NCBI GenBank assembly: GCA_002712305.1
Contig: PATE01000085.1
Coordinates: 40,324-80,472 of the forward strand
Direction: 5' to 3'
Source: Gemmatimonadota bacterium
GTDB taxonomy: Bacteria > Latescibacterota > UBA2968 > UBA8231
Length of the DNA stretch: 40,149 bases
Translations under genes and position numbers: made by a program
Notes under the pieces: model-generated
The model's input: only the letters and a program-made list of their open reading frames with translations
Database searches by the model: none
Told to the model about the DNA's origin: nothing
Shown: piece by piece, positions 2,538 to 40,149 of the stretch
Position numbering within the stretch: position 1 is the stretch's first letter
How the letters are laid out: each line of letters opens with the position of its first letter

Positions 2538-3892
2538 GTGCGCTCCTCCGGGCCCACGAGGCCATCAGGACTGGGTGTAGGGGGCGGCGGCAGGTCGGCG
2601 GGCCCTGACGGCTGCGGATCCTCTTCCCACTCGTCGGTTCGACCCTGGGTGGGAGGCCTTGGCTGCCCCTGGTCGAGAGCGTCTGCTTGATCCTGCGTGG
2701 GTGGCGCTGGCCCCACTGCCTCACCGAGGCGTTCGGCGGCATCGACCAGCCTTTGCGCGTCGCTTTCGAGATCATCCGGCTCCTGCGTTGCCAGGGCCGT
2801 CGCAGAGGGTGGATTGGGTTCCTCATCCTGCGTGTCGGATCGCTCGTCGTCATCGGAGGACGGCATCAGGCCCGTTGAGGACGATGTCGTCGGAGAGGAG
2901 GACGCCTGGGTCTCAAATGTTGCGTTGGGCTCCTGATGGCGTGTGTCCTGCGATGGATCTGAGGCGTCTTGCTCGTCTGCGGAGGTCGACGGTGTCCCAC
3001 CGTCCTGTGTCTCAGCATTCTGCGTTTCGTCGTTCAACGCTTCATCGTCCGGCGTTTCTGGCTGCTCTGGCTGGGCGCGGCTCTCGATCCAGATATCGTC
3101 GAAGGGTTGGGCTTGATGAACACGGATCCGTTGTGACTTGAGCAGTTCAAGAATGCCGATGAAAGTTGCCACGAGGGTAACTCGAGACTGCCCCACAACG
3201 AGCTCGTGGAATCTGAGTCGGGAGCGCTGATGGAGCTCGCCCAGAATCCGATCGATGCAGTCCTCGGTGGCGACTTCTTCCTCGACAATCTGATGAACCG
3301 CTGCCTGAGGAACGTGATCGATGACGTGTTTGTACACCTTCAACAGGTCGAACAGTGACACCGGCTGGAGTTCGGCATCTTCGGTGTCATCGGGCAGTCC
3401 ACCCGGTCGCTGATAGACATCGCGCTGTTCGGTACCCTGGTCACTGAGCCAGTCCGCGATCTCCTTGAACTGTTGATACTCGAGTAGCTTGCGGACCAAC
3501 TCCTCGCGCGGATCACCGAGTCCCTCGTCGAGCTCCTCGCCCTCGATGTCCCGCGGCAACAGCATCTGCGACTTGATCTTCATCAGCGTGGCAGCCATGA
3601 GGATGAAGTCGGCGGCACTCTCGAGATCCAACAGGTGAACTTCGCGGAGGAACGCCAGATACTGTGCCGTGATGCGAGCTACGGGGATGTCGTAGATGTC
3701 TACCTCGCTCTTACGAATGAGGTAGAGCAACAGGTCGAGGGGGCCCTCGAAGACATCGAGATTCACCCCGTAGTCGTCGATGAGGGCCTTCGCCTCGGCC
3801 GCTTCGACGCGAGCGGCTTCGTCTGAAACCGCGTCGTCCGGGATGATTGTCAGATCCGGGTCGGGTGTTTCGTTAGGGGGCGTATCAGTCAA
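2534..3892 (-). CDS. scpA: Segregation and condensation protein A (kleisin) with long disordered tail
   Basis: ScpA is the kleisin that bridges the Smc heads in bacterial condensin. The conserved N-terminal region is clear: VNLDVFEGPLDLLLYLIRKS at about residues 43-62, then VDIYDIPVARITAQYL and ADFILMAATLMKIKSQMLLP. The helical C-terminal domain ends near residue 265 (ATFIGILELLKSQRIRVHQ). About 185 further residues are low-complexity, rich in Asp, Glu, Ser, Thr, Pro and Gln, so the protein is nearly twice the usual length. The start used is TTG, four bases before the stop of the HNH gene (8-bp overlap) and without a clear Shine-Dalgarno sequence, so a shorter N-terminus is possible. The gene lies upstream of scpB with a 4-bp overlap. 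Confidence 0.93.
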   Translation of the reverse strand: MTDTPPNETPDPDLTIIPDDAVSDEAARVEAAEAKALIDDYGVNLDVFEGPLDLLLYLIRKSEVDIYDIPVARITAQYLAFLREVHLLDLESAADFILMAATLMKIKSQMLLPRDIEGEELDEGLGDPREELVRKLLEYQQFKEIADWLSDQGTEQRDVYQRPGGLPDDTEDAELQPVSLFDLLKVYKHVIDHVPQAAVHQIVEEEVATEDCIDRILGELHQRSRLRFHELVVGQSRVTLVATFIGILELLKSQRIRVHQAQPFDDIWIESRAQPEQPETPDDEALNDETQNAETQDGGTPSTSADEQDASDPSQDTRHQEPNATFETQASSSPTTSSSTGLMPSSDDDERSDTQDEEPNPPSATALATQEPDDLESDAQRLVDAAERLGEAVGPAPPTQDQADALDQGQPRPPTQGRTDEWEEDPQPSGPADLPPPPTPSPDGLVGPEERT

Positions 3893-4394
3893 GGAAGAGA
3901 TAGGGCTTCCATAGATGGTCGGAGACTCCGACGTGGTTGCGGATAAAGGTCACGTTGTTTGGTCGTCTGGGCTTTCGGATCAACGCAAGCCCAGCCTGTT
4001 CAGGCTGGCGACTCCCCTTGCGGGCGTTGCAGGTGGCGCAGGCGGCAACGAGGTTCTCCCAACTCGATGGGCCGTCGTGCGTCTTCGGTATGACATGGTC
4101 GATGGTCATCTTTCGATCGCGGATACCGCAATACTGACACTCGTAGTTATCGCGGCGCAGGACGTTGCGCTTGGACAAAACAACGCGCCTTCGGGGCGCC
4201 CGGACATATCGCTCGAGGCGGACGACGCTTGGAACCGCGTATGACGCCGAAACCGACCGCACTGCACCCAGCCCCGTCTCCACACTGCTCGCTTTGCCTC
4301 GGAACACAAGGGCCAGAGCGCGACGCACTGAGCAGACATTCAGAGGCTCGTAGTTCTGATTGAGGACCAACACGGAACGGTCCAGCACAATCAT
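3885..4394 (-). CDS. HNH endonuclease family protein
   Basis: This 169-residue protein belongs to the HNH nuclease superfamily with a beta-beta-alpha-metal fold. The visible elements are two structural cysteine pairs (CQYC at 86-89 and CATC at 119-122), the active-site DHVIP at 99-103, SWENLVAAC with a conserved Asn, and CNARKGSR. The N-terminal segment (VLVLNQNYEPLNVCSVRRAL) is typical of stand-alone chromosomal HNH proteins found in many phyla, whose physiological role is unclear. An ATG is used here, but a GTG six bases downstream (4388) is better placed behind GGAG. It overlaps scpA by 8 bp and follows gcvH after 168 bp. It does not look like a homing endonuclease inserted into another gene. 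Confidence 0.88.
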   Translation of the reverse strand: MIVLDRSVLVLNQNYEPLNVCSVRRALALVFRGKASSVETGLGAVRSVSASYAVPSVVRLERYVRAPRRRVVLSKRNVLRRDNYECQYCGIRDRKMTIDHVIPKTHDGPSSWENLVAACATCNARKGSRQPEQAGLALIRKPRRPNNVTFIRNHVGVSDHLWKPYLFLD

Positions 4395-4562
4395 CTCCGG
4401 GCCGTTGACGGGAGCAAGACACCCCCGACAGAGGGCGGTGGCACTCTCATGTGTGAGGCGCCACTCAAAGGTGGCGAAAGCTCAACGAAAGTGGGCGAAG
4501 AAAGAGGGAAATCAAGCCCCTTCGCCTGCACTAGGTCAAGACACCCCCCGGTGGAGGATCTG
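4395..4562. other. gcvH-HNH intergenic region with short repeats
   Basis: This 168-base gap has no gene. It contains a perfect 6-bp inverted repeat (CGCCAC/GTGGCG, loop TCAAAG, 4459-4476) and two copies of CAAGACACCCCC (4415-4426 and 4537-4548), one near each end. The hairpin could end the gcvH transcript, but it lacks a T tract. No convincing promoter for the HNH-scp group was found. Confidence 0.4.
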
Positions 4563-4961
4563 TCAGGCGTCCTCGATCAGCTCCTCATAGTCTTCGGCAG
4601 ACAGCATTGTATCCAAATCGGCCGTATCGGAAAGCCGAACCTTGATCATCCAGCCGTCGCTATAGGGATCGCTGTTTACCTGCTCGGCATCATCTTCGAG
4701 CGTGTCATTGATCTCCAGGACCTCGCCGGCAATCGGTGTGTACAATTCCTCCACCGTCTTGACGGCCTCGATCGTCCCAAAGGATTGCCCCTTTTCCAAT
4801 ACATCGCCTACCTGAGGCAATTCGACGAACACGATGTCACCCAACTGAGACTGGGCATAGTCGGTGACACCGATGGTGCCCACATCGCCATCAAGAGATA
4901 GCCACTCATGCTGCTCGCTGTATTTCAACTCGTCGGGGACTCTGGTTTCGGCCTCTGACAC
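4563..4961 (-). CDS. gcvH: Glycine cleavage system H protein (lipoyl carrier)
   Basis: GcvH carries the lipoyl arm that shuttles the aminomethyl group between the P, T and L proteins of the glycine cleavage system. It can also serve as a lipoate relay. The 132-residue length is typical. The protein shows KYSEQHEWLSLDGDVGTIGV near the N-terminus, DIVFVELPQVGD, and the lipoylation site in EAVKTVEELYTPIAGEV, with Lys68 as the acceptor. The C-terminal region (DPYSDGWMIKVRL) also matches. Translation starts at GTG with AAGGA eight bases upstream. No gcvT or gcvP lies nearby; instead it follows accC by 36 bp, so it is probably transcribed with the biotin carboxylase genes. Confidence 0.95.
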   Translation of the reverse strand: MSEAETRVPDELKYSEQHEWLSLDGDVGTIGVTDYAQSQLGDIVFVELPQVGDVLEKGQSFGTIEAVKTVEELYTPIAGEVLEINDTLEDDAEQVNSDPYSDGWMIKVRLSDTADLDTMLSAEDYEELIEDA

Positions 4962-4997
4962 GGGGCTGTCCTTTCTGCTAATAGTCTTGACTCATCG

Positions 4998-6356
4998 TCA
5001 GCCGACGACGGCGCTACCAAACTCGCTGCGATTGACCCACTCAGTATCGAAATTCCCCTGCACAAAGTCGTCGTTCTCCATCAGCATCTGATGGAAGGGA
5101 ATGGTGGTGGCTACCCCTTCGATGGTGAACTCGGACAGGGCACGCCGCATTCGGGAGATCGCCTGGTGCCGATCTCGGCCGCTGGTGATGAGCTTGGCCA
5201 GCAGGGAATCGTAGTAGGGAGGGACTGAATATCCTTGATACAGATGGCTGTCGACACGGACTCCAGGTCCACCTGGAATATACAGGGCCGAAATCTTGCC
5301 TGCCGAGGGCATGAAGTTCCGCTCTGGATCCTCGGCATTGATCCGGCACTCGATGGCGTGTCCCTCGTTGGGGACATCGCGTTGTTCATACCCGAGTTGC
5401 TCGCCCGATGCGACACGAATCATCTCGGCAATGAGATCGAGACCACTGATGGACTCGGAGACGGGATGCTCCACCTGGATCCGGGTGTTCATCTCCATGA
5501 AGTAGAACTCGAGATTCTCATCCACGAGGAACTCCACGGTTCCTGCACTCGCATAGCCGATACTCCGGGCACCCTCTACAGCCGCTTCACCAAGTCGTTG
5601 CCGTAACCCTTCGTCGACGGCAGGACTTGGGCTCTCTTCCACCAGTTTCTGGTGCCTCCGTTGGATCGAACATTCGCGTTCACCCACGTGAACGACATTC
5701 CCATGCTCGTCACCCAGGATCTGCACCTCGATGTGCCGGGCCGAGTTGATGGAGCGTTCCATGTACAGCGCATCGGAGGTGAATGCCGTACGCGCTTCAA
5801 GGCGGGCAAGATTCCACGCCTCCTCCAACTCCTCGGGGGCATTGACGACCCGCATACCGCGACCGCCGCCTCCAGCACTGGCCTTCAGACGTACAGGATA
5901 CCCAATCTCATCGGCTCGCTGACGGGCCTCCTCGACGTTCGGGATCACCTCTTCGCTACCGGGAATCACGGGCACACCGGCAGCGTCCATCGTGCTGCGC
6001 GCCGTCGCCTTGTCACCCATCTTGTCGATGGCTTCGGCGGGGGGGCCGATGAACTTGATTCCACTCGACCTGCAGACGTCTGCAAAGTCTGCATTCTCAG
6101 CGAGTGGGCCATATCCTGGATGGATGGCATCCGCATTCGTCAACTCTGTTGCTGAGATGATGTTGTTGACGTTCCGGTAGCTGGCCTCGCCCGCCGCGGG
6201 ACCGATACACACATCCTCATCGGCAAACAGAACGTGCGAGGCGTGCGCGTCGGCCTCGGAGTAGACGGCAACGGTACCGATCCCCAAGTCTTTGCAGGTG
6301 CGAATAATCCGCAGGGCGATTTCGCCCCGGTCGGCGATGAGGATCTTTTTGAACAC
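4998..6356 (-). CDS. accC: Biotin carboxylase subunit of acetyl-CoA carboxylase
   Basis: AccC carboxylates the biotin of AccB using ATP and bicarbonate, the first half-reaction of malonyl-CoA formation. The 452 residues match the usual length. The ATP-grasp signature is present: KASAGGGGRGMRVV, QRRHQKLVEESP (the Lys near ADP), FYFMEMNTRIQVEHPVSE with the catalytic Glu, Asn and Arg, and INAEDPERNFMPSAGKI. Several usually conserved positions differ: ADRGEIA instead of ANRGEIA, HPGYGPLAEN instead of HPGYGFLSEN, and SARHIEVQ instead of PRHIEVQ. The key catalytic residues seem intact. The start is GTG, 11 bases after accB. Other biotin-dependent carboxylases contain the same domain, but the stand-alone length and adjacent accB support the name. 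Confidence 0.95.
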   Translation of the reverse strand: MFKKILIADRGEIALRIIRTCKDLGIGTVAVYSEADAHASHVLFADEDVCIGPAAGEASYRNVNNIISATELTNADAIHPGYGPLAENADFADVCRSSGIKFIGPPAEAIDKMGDKATARSTMDAAGVPVIPGSEEVIPNVEEARQRADEIGYPVRLKASAGGGGRGMRVVNAPEELEEAWNLARLEARTAFTSDALYMERSINSARHIEVQILGDEHGNVVHVGERECSIQRRHQKLVEESPSPAVDEGLRQRLGEAAVEGARSIGYASAGTVEFLVDENLEFYFMEMNTRIQVEHPVSESISGLDLIAEMIRVASGEQLGYEQRDVPNEGHAIECRINAEDPERNFMPSAGKISALYIPGGPGVRVDSHLYQGYSVPPYYDSLLAKLITSGRDRHQAISRMRRALSEFTIEGVATTIPFHQMLMENDDFVQGNFDTEWVNRSEFGSAVVG

Positions 6357-18847: not shown

Positions 18848-18956
18848 AGGGTGCCCGTCCGCTGCCAGAGCGGGCTTTGACACTCTATGAGACCCCCGGT
18901 ATCTTTTGCGGGCTACGGTGACTAACTGCAGTAAAACCAGAAAGGTAGGCGATTTC

Positions 18957-21900
18957 TTGCGCCGATACCTCCTGCTTGCGGCGATGGCCTGTCTGACCCT
19001 CGCCGGCACCGCCCACGGACAGGTTCAGACGATTCACCACGGACAGGTTCGGACGATTCACACAGATCATTTCCGTATCACCTACTTCCCCGGTACGGAG
19101 AGCACGGCCCGCCGAGTGGCGGAGGTGGCCGAGGAAATCTTCCCTCATCTGGCAGCATCCTTCGGCTACTACGACGACTACGCACCGATTCACATCGTCG
19201 TGTTCGATGACACCGATTTCGGCAATGGTGCTGCGGACGACTACTCCAACACCGTCTATTTCTGGGCTTCCAATTTAGATTGGGAGATTCGAGGTGATCA
19301 CGACTGGGTGAAGAATGTCCTCACCCACGAGATCACCCACGTTCTGACCATCGACAAGGCCCGCAAGAAGTGGCCATTCCAGTTCGGGCTCATCTCGGTC
19401 AATCGCACGAACTCGAACCCTGACATGACCTTCGATTTCCCACTGTACTATCTGAGCACGCCCAAGTGGTGGGTAGAGGGCATCGCGCAGATGGGACCCT
19501 ATGGTGTCGGTTGGGATACGTGGGATTCGCACCGAGACATGCTCCTGCGCATGGCCGTGCTCGAAGACGACCTGCACACCTACGAAGAAATGGGAACCCT
19601 GAGCAACCGGACGGGCGGTTACCGCGGCGAGATGGTCTACAATCAGGGATTTGGTCTGCTCATCTACATGGCCCAGCAATACGGCCGGGACAAGGTCAAC
19701 CAGCTGCAGGAGCATATCGGCCTGTACAGCTTCGAAGTCGCCATCAAGCGCGTGTTGGGCATCGGCGCCGACCAACTGTATAAGGATTGGGTACGCTTTC
19801 TCAAGGACCAGTACAGTCAGCAAGTCGCCGAGATTCGCTCGGGCGGACACTTTGAGGGGCGCCCTCTCGATGAACTCAACGGCGGTGTTCTCGATTTCCA
19901 TCCCGTCTATTCACCAGATGGCACGAAGCTAGCCTACATCACCAGCGAGAATCGCGACTATCGCATTCCTCACCTGGCGATTTACGACTTCGAAACGGGT
20001 GAGAAGACCGTTCTCGACGATTTCGTCGATACGCGGATTTCCTGGTCGCCCGACAGCGATGAAATCGTGTTCCTGCGGTCCAAGGGCGGCCTCAACGATA
20101 TCTACATCTACAATCTGGAGACGGAGGTCGAACGCAGGGTCAGTGCGAGCCTGCGCGCCCGCGATCCGCACGTATCTCCCGATGGCAAACGGATCGTCTT
20201 TACGCGCAACCGAGACGGCTCGACAAATCTGTGTCTGATCAATCGTGACGGCACCGGTCTGGTGCAGTTGACGGATTACGAAGACGGCGAGCAAGTCTAC
20301 TCGCCGCGATGGTCTCCCGACGGCGAGCGTCTGCTGTTTACAATCTTTGCAGGTGAGGATCGCGACATCGCCATGATGCGCGCCGATAGCCCACCTCGGC
20401 CGAAGGATTGGGGTATTCGCGATCGGGCGGCACGACGGGGATCTGCGTCACGCCTCAAAAATCTCATGGAAGCCGATCAGGATACGGTTGCCAATGTGTG
20501 GCACGACAGCGTCGCATACCCCGCGGCGGACACCTCTGGCTTCCGGGTGGTTCTGGGATCCAACGACGATGAGCGTGATCCCTACTGGTTGCCAGATGGC
20601 ACAGGGTTCGTCTTCGCGTCAGATCCAACGGGGATCTTCAACATCTACAGATACGACCTGGAGGACGCCGGCGTCACGCAACTGACAAACGTGATCGGCG
20701 GTGCCTTCACGCCTTCGGTGGCCAACGATGGTCGGGTCGTCTACGCCGGCTACCACGCCAACAACTACGATCTCTATGAGTTCGATCTGGCCGACTACGG
20801 CAGTGCAACCGCGTGGGAATCACCACTGGAGCGCGACTACCAGACCAAACTCGCCTACCCGAAACTGTCTGAAGAGTATCGTGTTTCTCCGTATTTGGGA
20901 CGGAAACTTTACAGCGTCATTCCCCTTCTTCAGGTGGGCCCCACCTTTGTGGGAAACCAGTTTGGTCTGAACCAGGTCAGCGGTGGGCTCTATGTGTCCA
21001 CGAGGGAAGCCCTCGGTGGCTCGCGCCTCGTCGCCCAGGGAGTCGTGGGCAAGAACTTTCGTGAAGACACCGACCTCAACACGGACTTTCTCCTCTTCTA
21101 TGAGCGGAGTTTTCGTCCCCACGAGGCCAACAACTCAAGACTGACTCCGAGTTTCTTCGCCGCTTTTCGGCGACGCGAGATCGACTTCGTCATCAACAAC
21201 AACACGGTGACCACCGACTCCTTCGCCGTGACGACGCTGTTCCCCGTACCCACAGACACAACTGACCTCCTGGTTCCGGATGCCGAGCAGATTCGCATTC
21301 AAGCAGAAAGTCGCAAGGATCGTTTCAAGGACGTCTACAAGACCATCGCCCTGGGCATCGATGTCCCTTTGGGGCGTCGCAGCAACGCCTTCGTCCAGTA
21401 TGTACGACGAGACTATAACGAAGACTGGATCCTTCCACGTCTGCGTCAACGAACACAGTTCTACGTCATTCAGGACAGCGTCGATATCACAGCGTCCCTG
21501 CCGCCGGATCTGGTCAGCCAGGACACGCTGACCATCGATCCAGCTGAGCCCTTCGCATTCTACGACGGCCTCGACTTCTTCGATTCCCACGACCTGACCT
21601 TCGCTTTCCAGCATCGTCACATGAAGACGACCGAAGATTTCCTGATCAACCCGACGGGCAGATCGATGACACTGATCTACCGTTACTCGAAGTCATCGGT
21701 GGCTGACTCATTGGCCCAGCAGGTTTCACCTGACGGTGTGCCGCGGGACTTCTTCATCGAGGACAAGCGTCCTTTGACGGTGAATGAGTACGTGGGTTCC
21801 TATGTCGAGCGCGTGGGATTGCCCTTCAATAACCGGCTTTCCTTTCAGATTCTGGGTGCCTACCGGAACATCCAGCTGAAAGAGAGTTTTGACCCTGACG

Positions 21901-22427
21901 GTGGTTTCTTTGAAGGCCGATTTTACTGGCCCATGCGCTACTACATCGGTGGTCTGAACCTGCTCAGTGGTTATCCCTACTTCACTCAGTCCGGGTCGAA
22001 ACTGCTCTACACGCGGGTGGGGTACAGCTTTCCCGTTTTTCGTCGGATGAAGTCGAGTTTTCTCAACTTCACCTTCGCCAAGATGTATGCGGAGGTGTTC
22101 GCCGAGGCAGGAGCCGTCGGTAACTTCAGGGAAATCGACTTCGACGACTTCGATACGGACGACTTTCTTACCGACGTAGGCGGCGAACTGCGCATGGAGA
22201 TGTTCACCAACTACCGCATTCCCATGCGCGTGTTTTTTCAGGTCGCGCACCCGCTCAATCGCGTTCGACTGCAGCGCAGAGAGGCACAGGAGTTGGGTCT
22301 CACAGTCGACGATCCCGACGCGCCTGGCAAAATCGACAAGGTTCGCTACTATTTCGGGTTTGGATTCTTTCCCCAGGATCTACTTGGAGCCGTGCAGCAC
22401 ATCGTCCAGCCACGACGTCTTGATTAG
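18957..22427 (+). CDS. Giant envelope protein: gluzincin-type peptidase, PD40 beta-propeller and C-terminal barrel
   Basis: This 1156-residue protein appears exported and anchored in the outer membrane. The TTG start at 18957 is preceded by GGTAGG seven bases upstream and gives a clean signal peptide (RRYLLLAAMACLTLAGTAHG); a longer frame starts at 18906. Residues about 25-275 resemble MA-clan metallopeptidases, with HEITH at 124-128 and a candidate third ligand, Glu174, in WWVEGIAQ. Residues about 313-613 hold TolB-like propeller blades (YSPDGT, WSPDSD, VSPDGK, WSPDGE, WLPDGT). From about 630 on, alternating aromatic/polar strands and an end rich in Phe and Tyr (YYFGFGFFPQD) suggest a beta-barrel. 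It heads an operon with a microprotein and two lipoproteins. The substrate is unknown, and the barrel assignment is inference. Confidence 0.8.
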   Translation: MRRYLLLAAMACLTLAGTAHGQVQTIHHGQVRTIHTDHFRITYFPGTESTARRVAEVAEEIFPHLAASFGYYDDYAPIHIVVFDDTDFGNGAADDYSNTVYFWASNLDWEIRGDHDWVKNVLTHEITHVLTIDKARKKWPFQFGLISVNRTNSNPDMTFDFPLYYLSTPKWWVEGIAQMGPYGVGWDTWDSHRDMLLRMAVLEDDLHTYEEMGTLSNRTGGYRGEMVYNQGFGLLIYMAQQYGRDKVNQLQEHIGLYSFEVAIKRVLGIGADQLYKDWVRFLKDQYSQQVAEIRSGGHFEGRPLDELNGGVLDFHPVYSPDGTKLAYITSENRDYRIPHLAIYDFETGEKTVLDDFVDTRISWSPDSDEIVFLRSKGGLNDIYIYNLETEVERRVSASLRARDPHVSPDGKRIVFTRNRDGSTNLCLINRDGTGLVQLTDYEDGEQVYSPRWSPDGERLLFTIFAGEDRDIAMMRADSPPRPKDWGIRDRAARRGSASRLKNLMEADQDTVANVWHDSVAYPAADTSGFRVVLGSNDDERDPYWLPDGTGFVFASDPTGIFNIYRYDLEDAGVTQLTNVIGGAFTPSVANDGRVVYAGYHANNYDLYEFDLADYGSATAWESPLERDYQTKLAYPKLSEEYRVSPYLGRKLYSVIPLLQVGPTFVGNQFGLNQVSGGLYVSTREALGGSRLVAQGVVGKNFREDTDLNTDFLLFYERSFRPHEANNSRLTPSFFAAFRRREIDFVINNNTVTTDSFAVTTLFPVPTDTTDLLVPDAEQIRIQAESRKDRFKDVYKTIALGIDVPLGRRSNAFVQYVRRDYNEDWILPRLRQRTQFYVIQDSVDITASLPPDLVSQDTLTIDPAEPFAFYDGLDFFDSHDLTFAFQHRHMKTTEDFLINPTGRSMTLIYRYSKSSVADSLAQQVSPDGVPRDFFIEDKRPLTVNEYVGSYVERVGLPFNNRLSFQILGAYRNIQLKESFDPDGGFFEGRFYWPMRYYIGGLNLLSGYPYFTQSGSKLLYTRVGYSFPVFRRMKSSFLNFTFAKMYAEVFAEAGAVGNFREIDFDDFDTDDFLTDVGGELRMEMFTNYRIPMRVFFQVAHPLNRVRLQRREAQELGLTVDDPDAPGKIDKVRYYFGFGFFPQDLLGAVQHIVQPRRLD
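19014..19061 (+). repeat. Tandem 24-bp duplication within the envelope protein gene
   Basis: Two adjacent 24-base units (19014-19037 and 19038-19061) differ at one base and encode HGQVQTIH and HGQVRTIH. They lie right after the predicted signal peptide. It is a simple recent duplication in frame. Confidence 0.9.
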
Positions 22428-22441
22428 AAGGAGGGCACTTC

Positions 22442-22570
22442 ATGCAGCGAGTTGATCTTCGCAAGCTGGCTCTGCGTCTTAAGGTGATCGAGATGCTCAA
22501 GATTCACGCCGAACGAAGACGATTCCACACAGCCGGACAGCTGTGGCGTCAGCGGGTGATGCCCAATTGA
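22442..22570 (+). CDS. 42-residue basic microprotein
   Basis: This short reading frame is supported by a textbook ribosome binding site, AAGGAGGG at 22428-22435, six bases before the ATG. It begins 14 bases after the stop of the giant envelope gene and ends TTGA, where the TTG of the next lipoprotein gene overlaps its TGA. The product begins MQRVDLRKLALRLKVIEMLK and is strongly basic (many Arg and Lys), without a signal peptide or long hydrophobic stretch; an amphipathic helix is likely. I recognise no family. It may be a small functional protein, or mainly a leader that couples translation of the lipoprotein to the upstream gene. Confidence 0.65.
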   Translation: MQRVDLRKLALRLKVIEMLKIHAERRRFHTAGQLWRQRVMPN

Positions 22571-23172
22571 GACGACCCGCTCAAACGCAGTTTCTACCGA
22601 TCCTGGCCGCGGCTACTATCGCGATCTGGGGATGTGGGGATCAGGACGAGCCCCGGGGGGGCGACCCGGTCATGACGCAGGTGCTCCAGGGGTGGCACGT
22701 GGACACCGTTGGCGTCGTCAACATCACCGAAGCGGATACGATCAACACAGACCGTGGACTGCTGGCCGTGGAAACGACGCGGGTTTTTCCACTCGAGGCG
22801 AATGGGGGCGAGGTCTTTGCGTGGGAGTTCAACGCCCTCGAGCTGAATCCGGTCAAGATGTTGATCCTGAGACCCGTGCGTGGCGAGGACAGCTTTGAGA
22901 TCATCGGCGAATCGCCCATGGTCATACCGCGGCACAAAGGGGCAAATCGCTTCGAGCTTCCTGAGCCGATTCCGCTACAGTTTCCCTGCCTGTTGAGTTT
23001 CTATATGCCAGAGGAGGGGACCATCGGCTTTCGCAAGGTTCAAGACTGGAAGATGCTGATCACCACGGCGCCACTGCAGCGTCCTTTCATCTCCCGCGCC
23101 CCCTTCTCCATGTATGGGTGGCGCTATGGGATTCGCGCTTTCTGGCGTAAGAAGCCGGAATCGACGGAGTGA
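22567..23172 (+). CDS. Predicted lipoprotein of unknown function (201 aa)
   Basis: The N-terminus from the TTG at 22567 is MRRPAQTQFLPIL, then a hydrophobic stretch AAATIAIW and Gly-Cys, with Cys23 as the likely lipidated residue. The residue after Cys is Gly, not Asp, which favours the outer membrane in systems that use the Lol +2 rule. The mature domain has no recognised family: it is rich in beta-strand-forming sequence (FAWEFNALELNPVKMLILRP, then a segment from FEIIGESPMV onward) and ends basic. The start was chosen because TTGA overlaps the microprotein stop. An in-frame GTG at 22543 would add eight residues. The gene overlaps the next one by four bases (GTGA), so it is part of the four-gene envelope operon. 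Confidence 0.75.
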   Translation: MRRPAQTQFLPILAAATIAIWGCGDQDEPRGGDPVMTQVLQGWHVDTVGVVNITEADTINTDRGLLAVETTRVFPLEANGGEVFAWEFNALELNPVKMLILRPVRGEDSFEIIGESPMVIPRHKGANRFELPEPIPLQFPCLLSFYMPEEGTIGFRKVQDWKMLITTAPLQRPFISRAPFSMYGWRYGIRAFWRKKPESTE

Positions 23173-23879
23173 AACGACTCGCTTCACTTGTGGTGGCCGT
23201 CATCCTGTCAGGATGTGGCGAGAACGGCGGGGACACGGCACAGAATCGTCCCACGGATCGAATGCACCACGATCTGGCCAAGGTCAGCGGCGAACTCAAG
23301 CAACAACCCAATTCGCCGCTGCTGTACTTCGAAATCGGGCAGATCTACGAGCGATACGGGCTCATCGATTCGGCCCTCGCCTCCTACGACCACAGCGTTT
23401 TGCTGCACGAAGCGTTTCCCGAGGCACATCAGCGTCGCGGTGATCTGCATTTCCACAAGCAGAATCTGGAGCTCTCTGCGGCAGCCTATGAGCAGGCTGC
23501 ACGTTTTGCGCCCAATGCTCCGCAGGTCCACAACAATCTCGGGTTCGTGTATCGACGGCAGAATCGTCTGGACGAGGCGATCGGGGCCTACGAACGAGCT
23601 TTGGCTCTCGATTCTCTGATGGTGGAGGCCATCAACAATCTCGGGCAAGTCTACCGGGAGTCTGGCGACATCTCGTCGGCCATTAGATCCTTCCGTAGAG
23701 CGATCTCCGTAGATGCCGACTTCCGACAGGCTTACGTGAATCTGACGAAGATGCTGGCCGAAGAAGGCGAGCAGGCGCAGGAAGAACGTGACTTGCTCGA
23801 ACAGATGGTCAGTCGGTTCGACCCATCGCGGGAGGCCGACTATGCCCGATCTCGTCTGGCTGAACTGGACGGGGAGTGA
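23169..23879 (+). CDS. TPR-repeat lipoprotein
   Basis: This 236-residue protein begins with a lipoprotein signal peptide (KRLASLVVAVILSGCG, Cys16 after LSG). The mature part is a run of tetratricopeptide repeats: LLYFEIGQIYERYGLIDSAL, then VHNNLGFVYRRQNRLDEAIG, and AINNLGQVYRESGDISSAIR, with a last partial unit. TPR lipoproteins commonly scaffold envelope complexes, as in PilF or BamD; here the partners are probably the other products of this operon. Translation starts at GTG overlapping the upstream stop (GTGA). The 3' end overlaps the convergent pgsA gene by 71 bases. Confidence 0.88.
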   Translation: MKRLASLVVAVILSGCGENGGDTAQNRPTDRMHHDLAKVSGELKQQPNSPLLYFEIGQIYERYGLIDSALASYDHSVLLHEAFPEAHQRRGDLHFHKQNLELSAAAYEQAARFAPNAPQVHNNLGFVYRRQNRLDEAIGAYERALALDSLMVEAINNLGQVYRESGDISSAIRSFRRAISVDADFRQAYVNLTKMLAEEGEQAQEERDLLEQMVSRFDPSREADYARSRLAELDGE

Positions 23880-35450: not shown

Positions 35451-38400
35451 CTACTTCAGATACAGCGCCTTGCGCACGATTCGTTCTGTACCGGTGAGCA
35501 ATTCGATCAGATAGACACCTGCCGCAACGGGTTGAGAGCGCTCATCTCGACCCCGCCAGACGAGGCTGTGATGGCCGGCTGTCCGGGTCTCGTCGATGAG
35601 GGTCCGAATGGGCTGACCGAGCAAGTCGAAGATCCGCACACGTACCCTCTGACTCTCGAGAGCCTCCGGCACAAAGAAGGAGATCGTCGTTTCCGGGTTG
35701 AACGGATTCGGATAGGCCGGATACAGCACAAACTCCACCGGGAGGGCATCTACCGTGACATGCTCTGGCGCGGCGATCGAGAGGGCACGATCTGTGCCTG
35801 CATGACCGAGGGCATCACCCAGGCGAAGGGTCATCGCCCCGGGGTAGAGTCGTTCAAAGCGAAGCGTCGGCATGTCGAGGGCAAACGCTTCCTGGTCGAT
35901 ACCACGAGCGAAGGCCAGCTCAATGGACCCGGGGCGTAGATCCCGAGACCAGAGCAGCGAAGCAGCGGTCCCCGGTTGATCGTGAACACCCATGAACCTC
36001 AATTGGCTGGGATCGAACTCCACAACCGTCGCCAGGCCGCGAAGGGGTGGCTCACCCGTCCATCTCAGCGTCGCCTCGACAAAGTCGGTGGCGGATGGTC
36101 TGTCCTCGGTGGACAGGATCAGTCCGTCGAGGCCTGAGTCGTTGGTCAGAGCCACAGGACGTGCACTCGACCCAAAGGTGTCGGCGAAGAAGAAGAAATC
36201 ATCCAGATCGACGATTCCCCCTGAGTTGTTGAAGTCGCCGCGCGCGTCGGTAGTGCCATACAGATCTGCAAAGGCGAAGAAATCGTCGATGTCGACGATG
36301 CCATCATCGTTCAGATCCGTCGGCAGTGGGCTGCGGACACGGACCACAGAGACGGCCTGAATCTGAAGCGTATCCGGTGTATCGAAGCCCTCGCTCAGTA
36401 GCTGAGCCGTCTGTATTACCACTTCCGTCTCTGTATCGGATGCCGCACCAGAGTCGATGACCAACAGGAGTCGTCCCAACGCGCCGTCGCCTGACGAGCC
36501 TTCATCTGTGGCACCCGCCGTCGTGTCCGTGGAGACTTCAATTCGAACCTGACCGGCAGTCGAATCGGTGACGGTGGCTGTCGCTTCCGTCAACAGATTG
36601 GCACCGTCGGCTCCCTCAGTCTCGAAGCCGGCAACCTGCAGAACGGCCGGGTCGAAGGTCAGGTCTACGGTGGCCTGGGTTACACTGATGGCCTCAGTGA
36701 CGTAGATATCCACGCCGATCGTATCTCCCGCAGTGCCACCTCCGGTGGCCGCCTGTTGATTTCCGACCGACGGATCGAGGTCCAGTGAGACGAGGGTTGA
36801 AATCTGTCCAAACCCAGATACGGGGATCGTCACAGTCGAACGATCCGGATCATTGGTGTCGAAGGAGATCGTCGTCGACAGGGCACCGCGGTTTGCCGCG
36901 ACATAACGCACGTCAAGCGTCTGTGTTTCATCTTCCAGGACCTGACTGGCGCTGAACACGCAGGTGAGCTCGAGGTTGCCCACCTGCAGATTGCTGATGA
37001 CGAGTGTCGTGCGACCTGGATTCGACAGAGACAACGTGGCCGACGCTGAATCGCCGAGCGTCACCGTGCCAAAATCGATGCTGTCGGGTTCCAGCAGGGC
37101 GACGGGGATCGCCCGGGCGTCGACGATCCACTGGACGTGGGTCGAATCGGTACCGTCAAGAATCCGCGTGACCACGGTGTCTGCCGTCGTCGTATCCGGG
37201 ACATGAAGGAATTGGTCATCCGTTTCGCCACTCTGAACGACGCCATCTACAAGCCAGCGGAAACTCAGCCCGTCGCCTTCCTCATCGCTGGCCGAGACGC
37301 TGAACACGATTCCCTGTCCCGGATCGAAGAAGAAGAAGGAGTCTACCGGAGCTCGACTGACCAATACGGGTGCATCGTTGACGGCGCTGACGAGGATCGT
37401 GAAAGCCTGCGACACCACATTTCCACCCGGATCGCTGACCTGCACCGTCACATCGTGTGACCCTGTGTCCGCCTGGACCGGTGTCCAGCGGATCGTTCCG
37501 GTCGTGTCGATCGTCATCGATACGGGGGATGTCGTCAATTCGAAGCTGAGCGCCTCGCTTTCCTCATCGGTCGCGATGACACTGTATTCATACAGCGCAT
37601 CCTCGGGGGCTGTCGTATCGGCTGAGCTGGTGATGATGGGATCGTCATCGACTTCGATGACGGTGATACCAAAACTTGTCGAGTCGGTCCCGCCTTGCCC
37701 GTCCTCCACCTTGACGACGACGGAATTCGCTCCGACATCGGTTTGCACAGGCGTCCAAGACACCACGCCGGAAGAATCGACAAGGAGCGAATCTGGGCCC
37801 GAGGTGAGGGTAAAGGTGAGGGAGGTATCTGCCACATCGATGTCGGTGGCGGACAGCTGAAGCGTGAAGAGCTGATCTTCGGCTGTACTCGTGTCGGCGA
37901 TGGACACGAAGCTCGGGGCATCGTTGGTATTGAACACGGTGAGCGCGAAGGACTGCGTCGCCGATTCACCGCCCTCGTCGGTCACCAGAATCTCAACAGG
38001 GGCGGACCCCGTGTCCTGCTGCGTCGGAGCCCAGGTGACGAGCCCGTCTGCATCGATGGTCATGCCTTCGGGCCCACTGACCAGGGTGAAGGTCACGGCA
38101 TCCTCATCCAGTTCCAGAATCTCTACCGTATAACTGAATGCACTGTCTTCAAAGGCTTGTGTCGGTGCCGTACTTGTGATTCGCGGGGACTCGTTGGCTG
38201 GTCTGACGCGCACAGGAATGAAGTGACGGGCATTGGTGCCATCGCCGTTGAAGATCTGCAATCCCAGGAGCCAGGAGCCCGTATCGGCAATGGTCGGCGT
38301 CCAGGTGATGGGGAACTCCCGCACGCCGGGCGTGAGGGCATCGGCGAAACCAGGAGGGTTGTCGTGGCCGGACACCGGATCGACGAGGACGATATTCTTC

Positions 38401-39971
38401 TCTTCGTTCAATGTCGGTGTGTAGGTCCACTCGGCCCCCTGCACTACGAGCGAGTCGGGCAGTGCAGTGGCGCCGATCTCGATGGTCGTGCCCGCTGCGG
38501 GTGCATCTCCATTCGACGGGCCACCGGTATAGCCGATGTCATTGCGAACGCCGCCACCGGATGTCAGAGCGTCACGGAGACCGACAATCGGATTGCCTGC
38601 GTCACGGGCGCCCGAGCCTGACGTAATCTGCCAATTGCTGGTCGCCGTATTCAGAAACAGCGGGTCTGCGTACACGTTGCCACCGGCACTGCTGGCTGAA
38701 GAGAAGGTGGGAACGATTGAATTGAGCGTATTAAGGGCACCTGTCGTATCGACTTCAAAGGTGACGTTCACGATCGGCCATACACGCGTCGTGTCGGGAA
38801 AGTCTGCTTCTGAAAAAACCTCCAACACGTAACTGGCAAAACCCAGATTTCCTGAAGGGGTGTGGATGATCTCTACACGCAGGGCGTTGTTACCCACATG
38901 CGTCGAATCCGGGGTCCAGCGAATGATTCCCGCCTGCCAATCTGCAGTGGCAACTTCCGGAGGCAGATCGCTCGTATTGATCCGATTGAAGCTGTAGTCC
39001 GATTTGTCGCCATCGACTTCGATGACATACTCATACGTCGACCCGACTTTTGCGATCGTATCCGGCCGATTCGTGACGAAGCTGGGCAGAGATATGCCGA
39101 AATCGTCGAGGGTGAGTGTATCGCGAATCGTGCGCTTCACCTTCGTACTGTCTTTCTCTTCAGACAGTTGGAGAATATCCACGTCCCAGAACAAGTTGTA
39201 GCGAACCAGGGGGGCGTCCCCGGAGACCGAGTCGATGATCGCTGGGATCTGGTCGCCGGACTCAGCGAAGAAAATGTTGCTGCTGATATCGGTGCGGTTC
39301 CCCGTGGTCAACACCGCGGGCGCGTTGTTCAGATAGAAGGTGTTGTTGCGAACCACGTCTCTCTGCGAAGTGTCAGAAAACGTGTTGTGCAGACTCAACA
39401 AGGACCGATCTGAGCCTGTCGTGCCATTCACCCGAACCGTGTTGTTGAGAAACTTGAGGCGACCATCTTTGACATAGATCACCTCGCCCGCGTCCGTCGC
39501 CTTGTTGCCGATGATGCGGGTATTGGCCACCCTGAGTGAGCAGGTCTCGCAATAGATCGCGCCGCCCTGATCGGCAGCACCATTGAGCAAGGCCAGGTCT
39601 CGCAGGACGAAGTCGGAGGTGGGGGCCGTGATGGTGAAGATCCGCGAGAGTCCTTGCGCGTCGAGCAGGACACCACCCGGGGAACTCACATAGATCCCCG
39701 ATTGTGTAATCTCGAAGGGGAAGGTCTCACCCGAACTGGGCGAGTACATCCCACTGGTCAGATTGATCACGTGAGGTCGCCCGTCGGTGATCACGTGTGC
39801 GACCTTCAGCGCGTGTGTCAGCGTCTTCCAAGGTGTGGACGCATCCTGCGCGACAATGTGACTGCGACGATTGTCTCCCGTGCTGCTATCGACGTGAAAC
39901 GTCAACGCATCCACAGGGGTGCGCCACAGGATAGAACCCAGTAGGACGAGGGACAGAGTTCGCTGAATCAT
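35451..39971 (-). CDS. Large secreted modular protein: beta-helix, Ig-like repeats, cohesin, dockerin-like repeat, FlgD/T9SS-like end
   Basis: This 1506-residue exported protein is built of modules. After a signal peptide (MIQRTLSLVLLGSILWRTPV) come right-handed beta-helix-like repeats (about 25-260), an Ig-like unit (about 290-385) and a second beta-helix-like piece (about 400-480). Cadherin/Ig-like repeats follow (about 490-870), with WTPVQxD..G signatures, then an abnormal-spindle-like domain (about 955-1055, FGTVTLGDSASATLSLSN). A cohesin-like domain spans about 1060-1210, two dockerin/EF-hand-like loops 1217-1265 (DLNDDGIVDIDD, DFNNSGGIVDLDD), and a second cohesin-like region about 1295-1400. 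The end (YPAYPNPFNPETT, then AGVYLIELLTG) is the FlgD-Ig/type IX sorting-like domain. The ATG at 39971 avoids overlap with the upstream gene. Surface adhesion or polysaccharide-related roles are likely. Confidence 0.88.
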   Translation of the reverse strand: MIQRTLSLVLLGSILWRTPVDALTFHVDSSTGDNRRSHIVAQDASTPWKTLTHALKVAHVITDGRPHVINLTSGMYSPSSGETFPFEITQSGIYVSSPGGVLLDAQGLSRIFTITAPTSDFVLRDLALLNGAADQGGAIYCETCSLRVANTRIIGNKATDAGEVIYVKDGRLKFLNNTVRVNGTTGSDRSLLSLHNTFSDTSQRDVVRNNTFYLNNAPAVLTTGNRTDISSNIFFAESGDQIPAIIDSVSGDAPLVRYNLFWDVDILQLSEEKDSTKVKRTIRDTLTLDDFGISLPSFVTNRPDTIAKVGSTYEYVIEVDGDKSDYSFNRINTSDLPPEVATADWQAGIIRWTPDSTHVGNNALRVEIIHTPSGNLGFASYVLEVFSEADFPDTTRVWPIVNVTFEVDTTGALNTLNSIVPTFSSASSAGGNVYADPLFLNTATSNWQITSGSGARDAGNPIVGLRDALTSGGGVRNDIGYTGGPSNGDAPAAGTTIEIGATALPDSLVVQGAEWTYTPTLNEEKNIVLVDPVSGHDNPPGFADALTPGVREFPITWTPTIADTGSWLLGLQIFNGDGTNARHFIPVRVRPANESPRITSTAPTQAFEDSAFSYTVEILELDEDAVTFTLVSGPEGMTIDADGLVTWAPTQQDTGSAPVEILVTDEGGESATQSFALTVFNTNDAPSFVSIADTSTAEDQLFTLQLSATDIDVADTSLTFTLTSGPDSLLVDSSGVVSWTPVQTDVGANSVVVKVEDGQGGTDSTSFGITVIEVDDDPIITSSADTTAPEDALYEYSVIATDEESEALSFELTTSPVSMTIDTTGTIRWTPVQADTGSHDVTVQVSDPGGNVVSQAFTILVSAVNDAPVLVSRAPVDSFFFFDPGQGIVFSVSASDEEGDGLSFRWLVDGVVQSGETDDQFLHVPDTTTADTVVTRILDGTDSTHVQWIVDARAIPVALLEPDSIDFGTVTLGDSASATLSLSNPGRTTLVISNLQVGNLELTCVFSASQVLEDETQTLDVRYVAANRGALSTTISFDTNDPDRSTVTIPVSGFGQISTLVSLDLDPSVGNQQAATGGGTAGDTIGVDIYVTEAISVTQATVDLTFDPAVLQVAGFETEGADGANLLTEATATVTDSTAGQVRIEVSTDTTAGATDEGSSGDGALGRLLLVIDSGAASDTETEVVIQTAQLLSEGFDTPDTLQIQAVSVVRVRSPLPTDLNDDGIVDIDDFFAFADLYGTTDARGDFNNSGGIVDLDDFFFFADTFGSSARPVALTNDSGLDGLILSTEDRPSATDFVEATLRWTGEPPLRGLATVVEFDPSQLRFMGVHDQPGTAASLLWSRDLRPGSIELAFARGIDQEAFALDMPTLRFERLYPGAMTLRLGDALGHAGTDRALSIAAPEHVTVDALPVEFVLYPAYPNPFNPETTISFFVPEALESQRVRVRIFDLLGQPIRTLIDETRTAGHHSLVWRGRDERSQPVAAGVYLIELLTGTERIVRKALYLK

Positions 39972-40035
39972 TCGTCGTTTTCGGTGGTCAGTCAGGGGAC
40001 TGCGGGGGCACGTCACGGGGCCGATCCGGAGCGAG

Positions 40036-40055
40036 CCTGGGGGGAAGACCCCAGG
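40036..40055 (-). terminator. Stem-loop after the partial gene at the right edge
   Basis: CCTGGGG/CCCCAGG with a six-base loop begins eight bases after the stop of the partial reading frame at 40063. No T tract follows. It is a plausible terminator and supports a gene ending there. Confidence 0.5.
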
Positions 40056-40062
40056 AAATACC

Positions 40063-40149
40063 TCAAAAAGTCCGATCTTCCAGCAACTGGCGAACGACCG
40101 GTCTGACGAAGACACCATCCAATGGCATTTTCGACAGAGCGTCGGCCAT
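40063..40149 (-). CDS. 3' end of an unidentified gene (partial)
   Basis: This minus-strand frame is open from the right edge of the window to TGA at 40063-40065. The visible 28 residues end VRQLLEDRTF and begin with ATG at the very edge, which may be an internal Met. A stem-loop follows the stop, and the next gene downstream starts at 39971. Too short for a family assignment. Confidence 0.4.
   Translation of the reverse strand: MADALSKMPLDGVFVRPVVRQLLEDRTF

What the first reader, a model, noticed from the sequence alone, without database searches (positions are those of the whole stretch)
18957..22427. Fusion of metallopeptidase, TolB-like propeller and barrel in one outer-membrane protein
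The order signal peptide, HEITH peptidase, SPDG-type propeller and a long aromatic beta-rich C-terminus is unusual in a single chain. A surface or periplasmic peptidase tethered to an outer-membrane barrel would be a novel way of processing extracellular or envelope substrates. The peptidase and propeller parts are visible motifs; the barrel is inferred from strand periodicity.
Basis: partly seen in the sequence, partly recalled or inferred. Interest (0 to 1): 0.6.

Follow-up and report, generated by a model that had tools for sequence, protein, structure and literature searches.

The report
Outer-membrane peptidase with propeller and barrel
The gene encodes one protein made of a zinc peptidase, a TolB-like propeller and an Omp85-type outer-membrane barrel; it belongs to a partly known but unstudied family found in nearly every genome of its phylum, in which a peptidase domain accompanies the already named "WD40-Omp85" barrels.

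Summary
Window 18957-22427 (+) encodes an exported 1156-residue protein: a gluzincin-type metallopeptidase (HEITH 124-128, Glu174; fold like M30/M9/M1 peptidases, best Z 15.1), a TolB-like propeller (Z 26.9) and a C-terminal Omp85-type barrel. The fusion is not a local oddity: 60 of 64 genomes of the phylum have a match (19 of 19 good ones), and the host has two more genes of the same architecture. The barrel is divergent here, but Pfam's Omp85 model scores above its cut-off in both paralogues and several homologues, and profile comparison links it to the host's BamA. Heinz and Lithgow (2014) already named a "WD40-Omp85" subfamily; the section I read reports no peptidase in it. Of 20 large Omp85 proteins picked across the phylum by barrel and length, 16 had the propeller, and all 16 also had the HExxH/EGxA peptidase; three others were patatin-Omp85. 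So the peptidase looks integral to that subfamily here. By Omp85 topology it should face the periplasm, not the surface. Most likely it is a barrel-anchored periplasmic protease for envelope quality control, maturation or peptide processing; the substrate is unknown. A new variant of a known kind, not a new system.

The parts
18957..22427 (+). whole gene (TTG start; alternative in-frame TTG at 18906), 1156 aa, peptidase-propeller-Omp85 barrel
18957..19019 (+). predicted Sec signal peptide, residues 1-21 (MRRYLLLAAMACLTLAGTAHG), no lipobox
   Evidence: read from the sequence; no signal-peptide program was run
19032..19841 (+). gluzincin-type metallopeptidase domain, residues 26-295
   Evidence: Peptidase_MA_2 in 27/28 aligned sequences; separate AF2 model matches M30/M9/M1/M61 peptidases, Z 12-15
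19326..19340 (+). HEITH, residues 124-128, zinc ligands and general base
   Evidence: H124, E125, H128 conserved in 27/27 sequences with residues there
19476..19478 (+). Glu174 (WWVEGIAQ), third zinc ligand
   Evidence: 28/28; lies in the next helix of the model
19638..19640 (+). Tyr228 (EMVYNQGF), candidate catalytic tyrosine (inference)
   Evidence: 28/28; role inferred from M1-type enzymes
19848..20816 (+). TolB-like PD40 beta-propeller, residues 298-620
   Evidence: PD40 E 3e-23; TolB structures Z 25-27
20880..22364 (+). C-terminal Omp85-type outer-membrane barrel, residues 642-1136
   Evidence: Pfam Omp85 above cut-off in homologues and paralogues
21948..21974 (+). Omp85 loop-6 motif, GGLNLLSGY here; GG..LRGY in most homologues outside the family, Ser for Arg throughout the host's family
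22543..23172 (+). downstream conserved unknown lipoprotein-like gene (neighbour, not shown to be a partner)
   Evidence: syntenic in many family members; no Pfam family
23169..23879 (+). downstream TPR lipoprotein-like gene (neighbour, not shown to be a partner)

Best explanation
An outer-membrane Omp85-type barrel that carries, on its periplasmic side, a TolB-like propeller and, at the free N-terminus, a zinc peptidase of the gluzincin (clan MA) kind. Shown by computation: the three domains, the conserved active-site residues, Omp85 kinship of the barrel, phylum-wide conservation with paralogues. From established knowledge: Omp85 barrels have their N-terminus in the periplasm, so the peptidase works there. 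Inferred: the propeller is a docking platform, and the peptidase cuts proteins or peptides at the inner face of the outer membrane, most likely in quality control or maturation of envelope proteins (the job that BepA, a separate M48 peptidase, does at the BAM complex in E. coli), possibly also peptide processing for uptake. Confidence is about 0.9 for the architecture and about 0.4 for this function; the figure given is for the statement as a whole.
For: Domains. Barrel profile against the host's own BamA E 1.7e-5 and POTRA-Omp85 E 3e-5, against a FadL/PorV-like outer-membrane protein of the same genome E 0.68 as control. Active-site residues unvaried in all aligned sequences. 60/64 phylum genomes, 19/19 good ones. 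Of 20 large Omp85 proteins, 16/16 with the propeller also have HExxH and EGxA; three of the other four are patatin-Omp85. One paralogue lies next to a BamB-like lipoprotein gene; two homologues (L060, L062) lie by Band_7 (HflK/HflC-like) genes. Periplasmic side of an Omp85-fused enzyme shown for PlpD (PMC11116518); BepA precedent PMC8423444.
Against: No activity, metal binding, location or substrate is shown. No POTRA domain was found and, in the host's family, the loop-6 Arg is Ser, so the barrel may not insert or translocate proteins. Neighbours differ between lineages: OppD/OppF-type ABC ATPases lie directly upstream in the other families of the class, which fits peptide uptake better than quality control.
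Confidence: 0.6

Rival explanations
1. Nutritional or scavenging peptidase: peptides that enter through the outer membrane are trimmed by the barrel-anchored peptidase and passed to an inner-membrane oligopeptide ABC transporter.
For: In the sampled homologues of the class's other families, OppD/OppF-type ATPase genes (with oligo_HPY domain) lie directly upstream on the same strand. Latescibacteria genomes are described as peptide users (PMC4454575).
Against: No such transporter genes are next to the gene in the host's own family or directly next to the homologues from other phyla that were inspected; the permease genes of these loci were not identified.
Confidence: 0.25
2. Surface protease: the barrel exports the peptidase and propeller to the cell surface (type Vd-like autotransport), where they act on external substrates.
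Against: The PlpD enzyme domain proved to be periplasmic (PMC11116518); about 600 N-terminal residues would have to pass an Omp85 barrel.
Confidence: 0.1
3. Outer-membrane protein insertase (BamA plus BamB in one chain) in which the peptidase is a regulator or chaperone rather than the main activity.
For: Heinz and Lithgow suggested a BamA-BamB-like fusion for WD40-Omp85 (PMC4104836); one paralogue lies beside a BamB-like gene.
Against: A normal BamA exists in the genome; no POTRA found; catalytic residues are unvaried, arguing for enzyme activity.
Confidence: 0.2

Closest known systems
WD40-Omp85 subfamily (Heinz and Lithgow 2014, PMC4104836)
   Same: TolB-like propeller followed by an Omp85 barrel, no POTRA
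   Different: The section read reports no peptidase domain for it; here every sampled propeller-Omp85 protein has one
PlpD / patatin-Omp85 proteins
   Same: Enzyme domain fused to an Omp85 barrel; present in the same phylum
   Different: Lipase-type enzyme and a POTRA domain; no propeller
BepA (E. coli M48 metallopeptidase at the BAM complex, PMC8423444)
   Same: Periplasmic zinc metallopeptidase working at an Omp85 barrel; functional analogy only
   Different: Separate protein with a TPR domain, not fused to a barrel
M30/M1/M9/M61 gluzincin peptidases
   Same: Fold and HExxH...E site
   Different: Sequence identity only 8-17%; not assigned to a MEROPS family here
TolB
   Same: Propeller fold, Z up to 26.9
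   Different: Only the propeller; the gene is not in a Tol-Pal operon

Membership tests
Omp85 superfamily | Omp85 barrel recognised by sequence | tested here: met
   Not reported by Pfam in the query itself, but above cut-off in homologues L061, L062, L063 and in both paralogues; hhalign with the host's BamA E 1.7e-5
Omp85 superfamily | 16-stranded closed barrel | tested here: inconclusive
   Model has about 17 strands, five after the LSGY loop; closure not measured and many segments have pLDDT 50-70
Omp85 superfamily | loop-6 RG(F/Y) motif | tested here: inconclusive
   LSGY in the host's family, LRGY/MRGY in most others
WD40-Omp85 subfamily | TolB-like WD40/PD40 propeller N-terminal to an Omp85 barrel | tested here: met
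   PD40 E 3e-23; TolB Z 26.9
WD40-Omp85 subfamily | clusters with the published sequences of that subfamily | not testable with these tools
   The published accession tables were not available
Peptidase clan MA (gluzincins) | HExxH plus downstream Glu ligand | tested here: met
   H124, E125, H128 in 27/27 and E174 in 28/28
Peptidase clan MA (gluzincins) | gluzincin fold | tested here: met
   Separate domain model: lugdulysin Z 15.1, aminopeptidases and collagenases Z 12-13.6, Foldseek E 3e-5
Peptidase clan MA (gluzincins) | zinc binding and proteolysis | not testable with these tools
   Needs the purified protein
Patatin-Omp85 (PlpD) | patatin domain | tested here: not met
   No patatin match in the query

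The most novel reading that the evidence does not exclude
The whole WD40-Omp85 subfamily is in fact a peptidase-propeller-Omp85 family: a self-contained outer-membrane protease machine that joins in one chain what E. coli does with BepA, BamB and BamA, and whose catalytic domain was overlooked when the subfamily was named.
Probability: 0.3. Interest if true: 0.6.

Novelty: new variant of a known kind. Interest (0 to 1): 0.4.

Why it matters
It would put a protease directly on an Omp85 barrel, in a subfamily listed for years without known function, and give a concrete active site to test. If general, it changes the guess for WD40-Omp85 proteins from assembly platform to membrane-anchored protease, in phyla where envelope quality control is unstudied.

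Tried and rejected
Surface display as the default reading: set aside on Omp85 topology and the PlpD precedent. A one-off or mis-assembled fusion: rejected, long homologues in many genomes. A chance HExxH: rejected, invariant together with Glu174 and supported by fold. Pfam on the query's own barrel gave nothing, and hhalign of the barrel against a short Omp85 of the same genome (L085) gave no significant match, so the barrel claim rests on homologues, BamA and the model. The Salinibacter plasmid protein related to the N-terminal half shows no Omp85 match and is followed by an S10 peptidase gene, not a split barrel. Promoter and terminator scans were at chance level. Structure search of the full chain was filled by propellers, so the other domains were barely tested there. 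Literature searches for the combined architecture found nothing specific.

Full report
Observation. Its stated residues (His124, His128, Glu174) are where it says. It begins with a Sec-type signal peptide, read by eye.

Domains. Pfam finds PD40 propeller repeats (E 3e-23) and only a weak Peptidase_MA_2 match in the query, but Peptidase_MA_2 is matched by 27 of 28 aligned sequences. PDB sequence search finds TolB for the propeller. AlphaFold2 on 28 sequences gave mean pLDDT 71, pTM 0.65; the propeller matches TolB at Z up to 26.9, and Fusobacterium BamA appears at rank 50 of Foldseek. The peptidase domain folded alone (pLDDT 76) matches lugdulysin (M30) at Z 15.1, and aminopeptidases and collagenases at Z 12-13.6 (Foldseek best E 3e-5). 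The HExxH helix and the Glu174 helix are consecutive long helices, apart from a loop modelled with low confidence. H124, E125, H128, E174 and Y228 do not vary in the aligned sequences.

Barrel. Pfam does not see it in the query. It is seen above the cut-off in L061, L062 and L063 and in the two paralogues of the host genome. Profile comparison of the barrel gives E 1.7e-5 with the host's BamA and 3e-5 with a POTRA-Omp85, against 0.68 for a FadL/PorV-like control; a short Omp85 of the same genome was not matched significantly. The model has about 17 strands with five after the LSGY loop, the BamA pattern (the strand order of BamA is from my own knowledge). Throughout the host's family the loop-6 Arg is Ser.

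Family. All of the 40 genomes searched first (the host included) matched; 60 of 64 genomes of the phylum have a match at E 1e-30, 19 of 19 good ones. Record titles of relatives point to Latescibacterota as the host phylum, with homologues labelled Zixibacteria, Krumholzibacteriota, Fibrobacter and others. The host genome holds two paralogues with HELVH and HELMH, and genomes of other groups hold several peptidase-profile matches in long frames. To ask whether the peptidase goes with the propeller-barrel, 20 large Omp85 reading frames were taken from a barrel-only search of 31 genomes. Sixteen had the propeller, and all sixteen also had the peptidase profile and HExxH/EGxA; four had neither, and three of those are patatin-Omp85. 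I chose these 20 by frame length (about 850-1155 aa) from the printed list, so they are not a random sample, and a propeller-Omp85 protein too short to hold a peptidase could have been missed.

Neighbourhood. In the host's family the gene sits between a DegT aminotransferase/epimerase pair and an unknown lipoprotein, a TPR lipoprotein, a CDP-alcohol transferase and RecN. In the other families of the class the two genes directly upstream are OppD/OppF-type ATPases. In L060 and L062 Band_7 (HflK/HflC-like) genes are near; in L058, L061 and L063 PorV-like genes lie in the vicinity. No single partner is constant, so function cannot be read from context.

Prior work. Heinz and Lithgow named WD40-Omp85 and likened it to a BamA-BamB fusion. 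Their "Metallo" subfamily is defined by PF00149, which the tool names Metallophos, a phosphoesterase family by my own knowledge. The patatin domain of PlpD stays in the periplasm. BepA works on LptD at the BAM complex.

Verdict. Architecture firm; function a reasoned guess. A new variant of a known kind, interest 0.4.

Noticed in passing
window 35451-40118 (-): 1555-aa protein with Ig-type repeats and a C-terminal FlgD_ig/Por_Secre_tail region, probably a type IX secretion cargo.
   Followed up: partly
window 22543-23172 (+): Conserved lipoprotein-like gene without a Pfam family, next to the focal gene across the host's family.
   Followed up: partly
L083 894-4918 (-): Paralogue overlapping a BamB-like PQQ_2 lipoprotein gene by about 30 bases.
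   Followed up: partly
L050, L051, L052, L059 and similar, about 3600-5750: OppD/OppF-type ABC ATPase pair directly upstream of the homologue in the class's other families, together with a DUF6754 protein and unknown membrane proteins.
   Followed up: partly
literature: PMC4104836 (no window coordinates): The published Omp85 'metalloprotease' subfamily is defined by PF00149, which Pfam names Metallophos; the label may be wrong.
   Followed up: partly
window 21948-21974 (+): Loop-6 Arg of the Omp85 motif is replaced by Ser throughout the host's family.
   Followed up: partly
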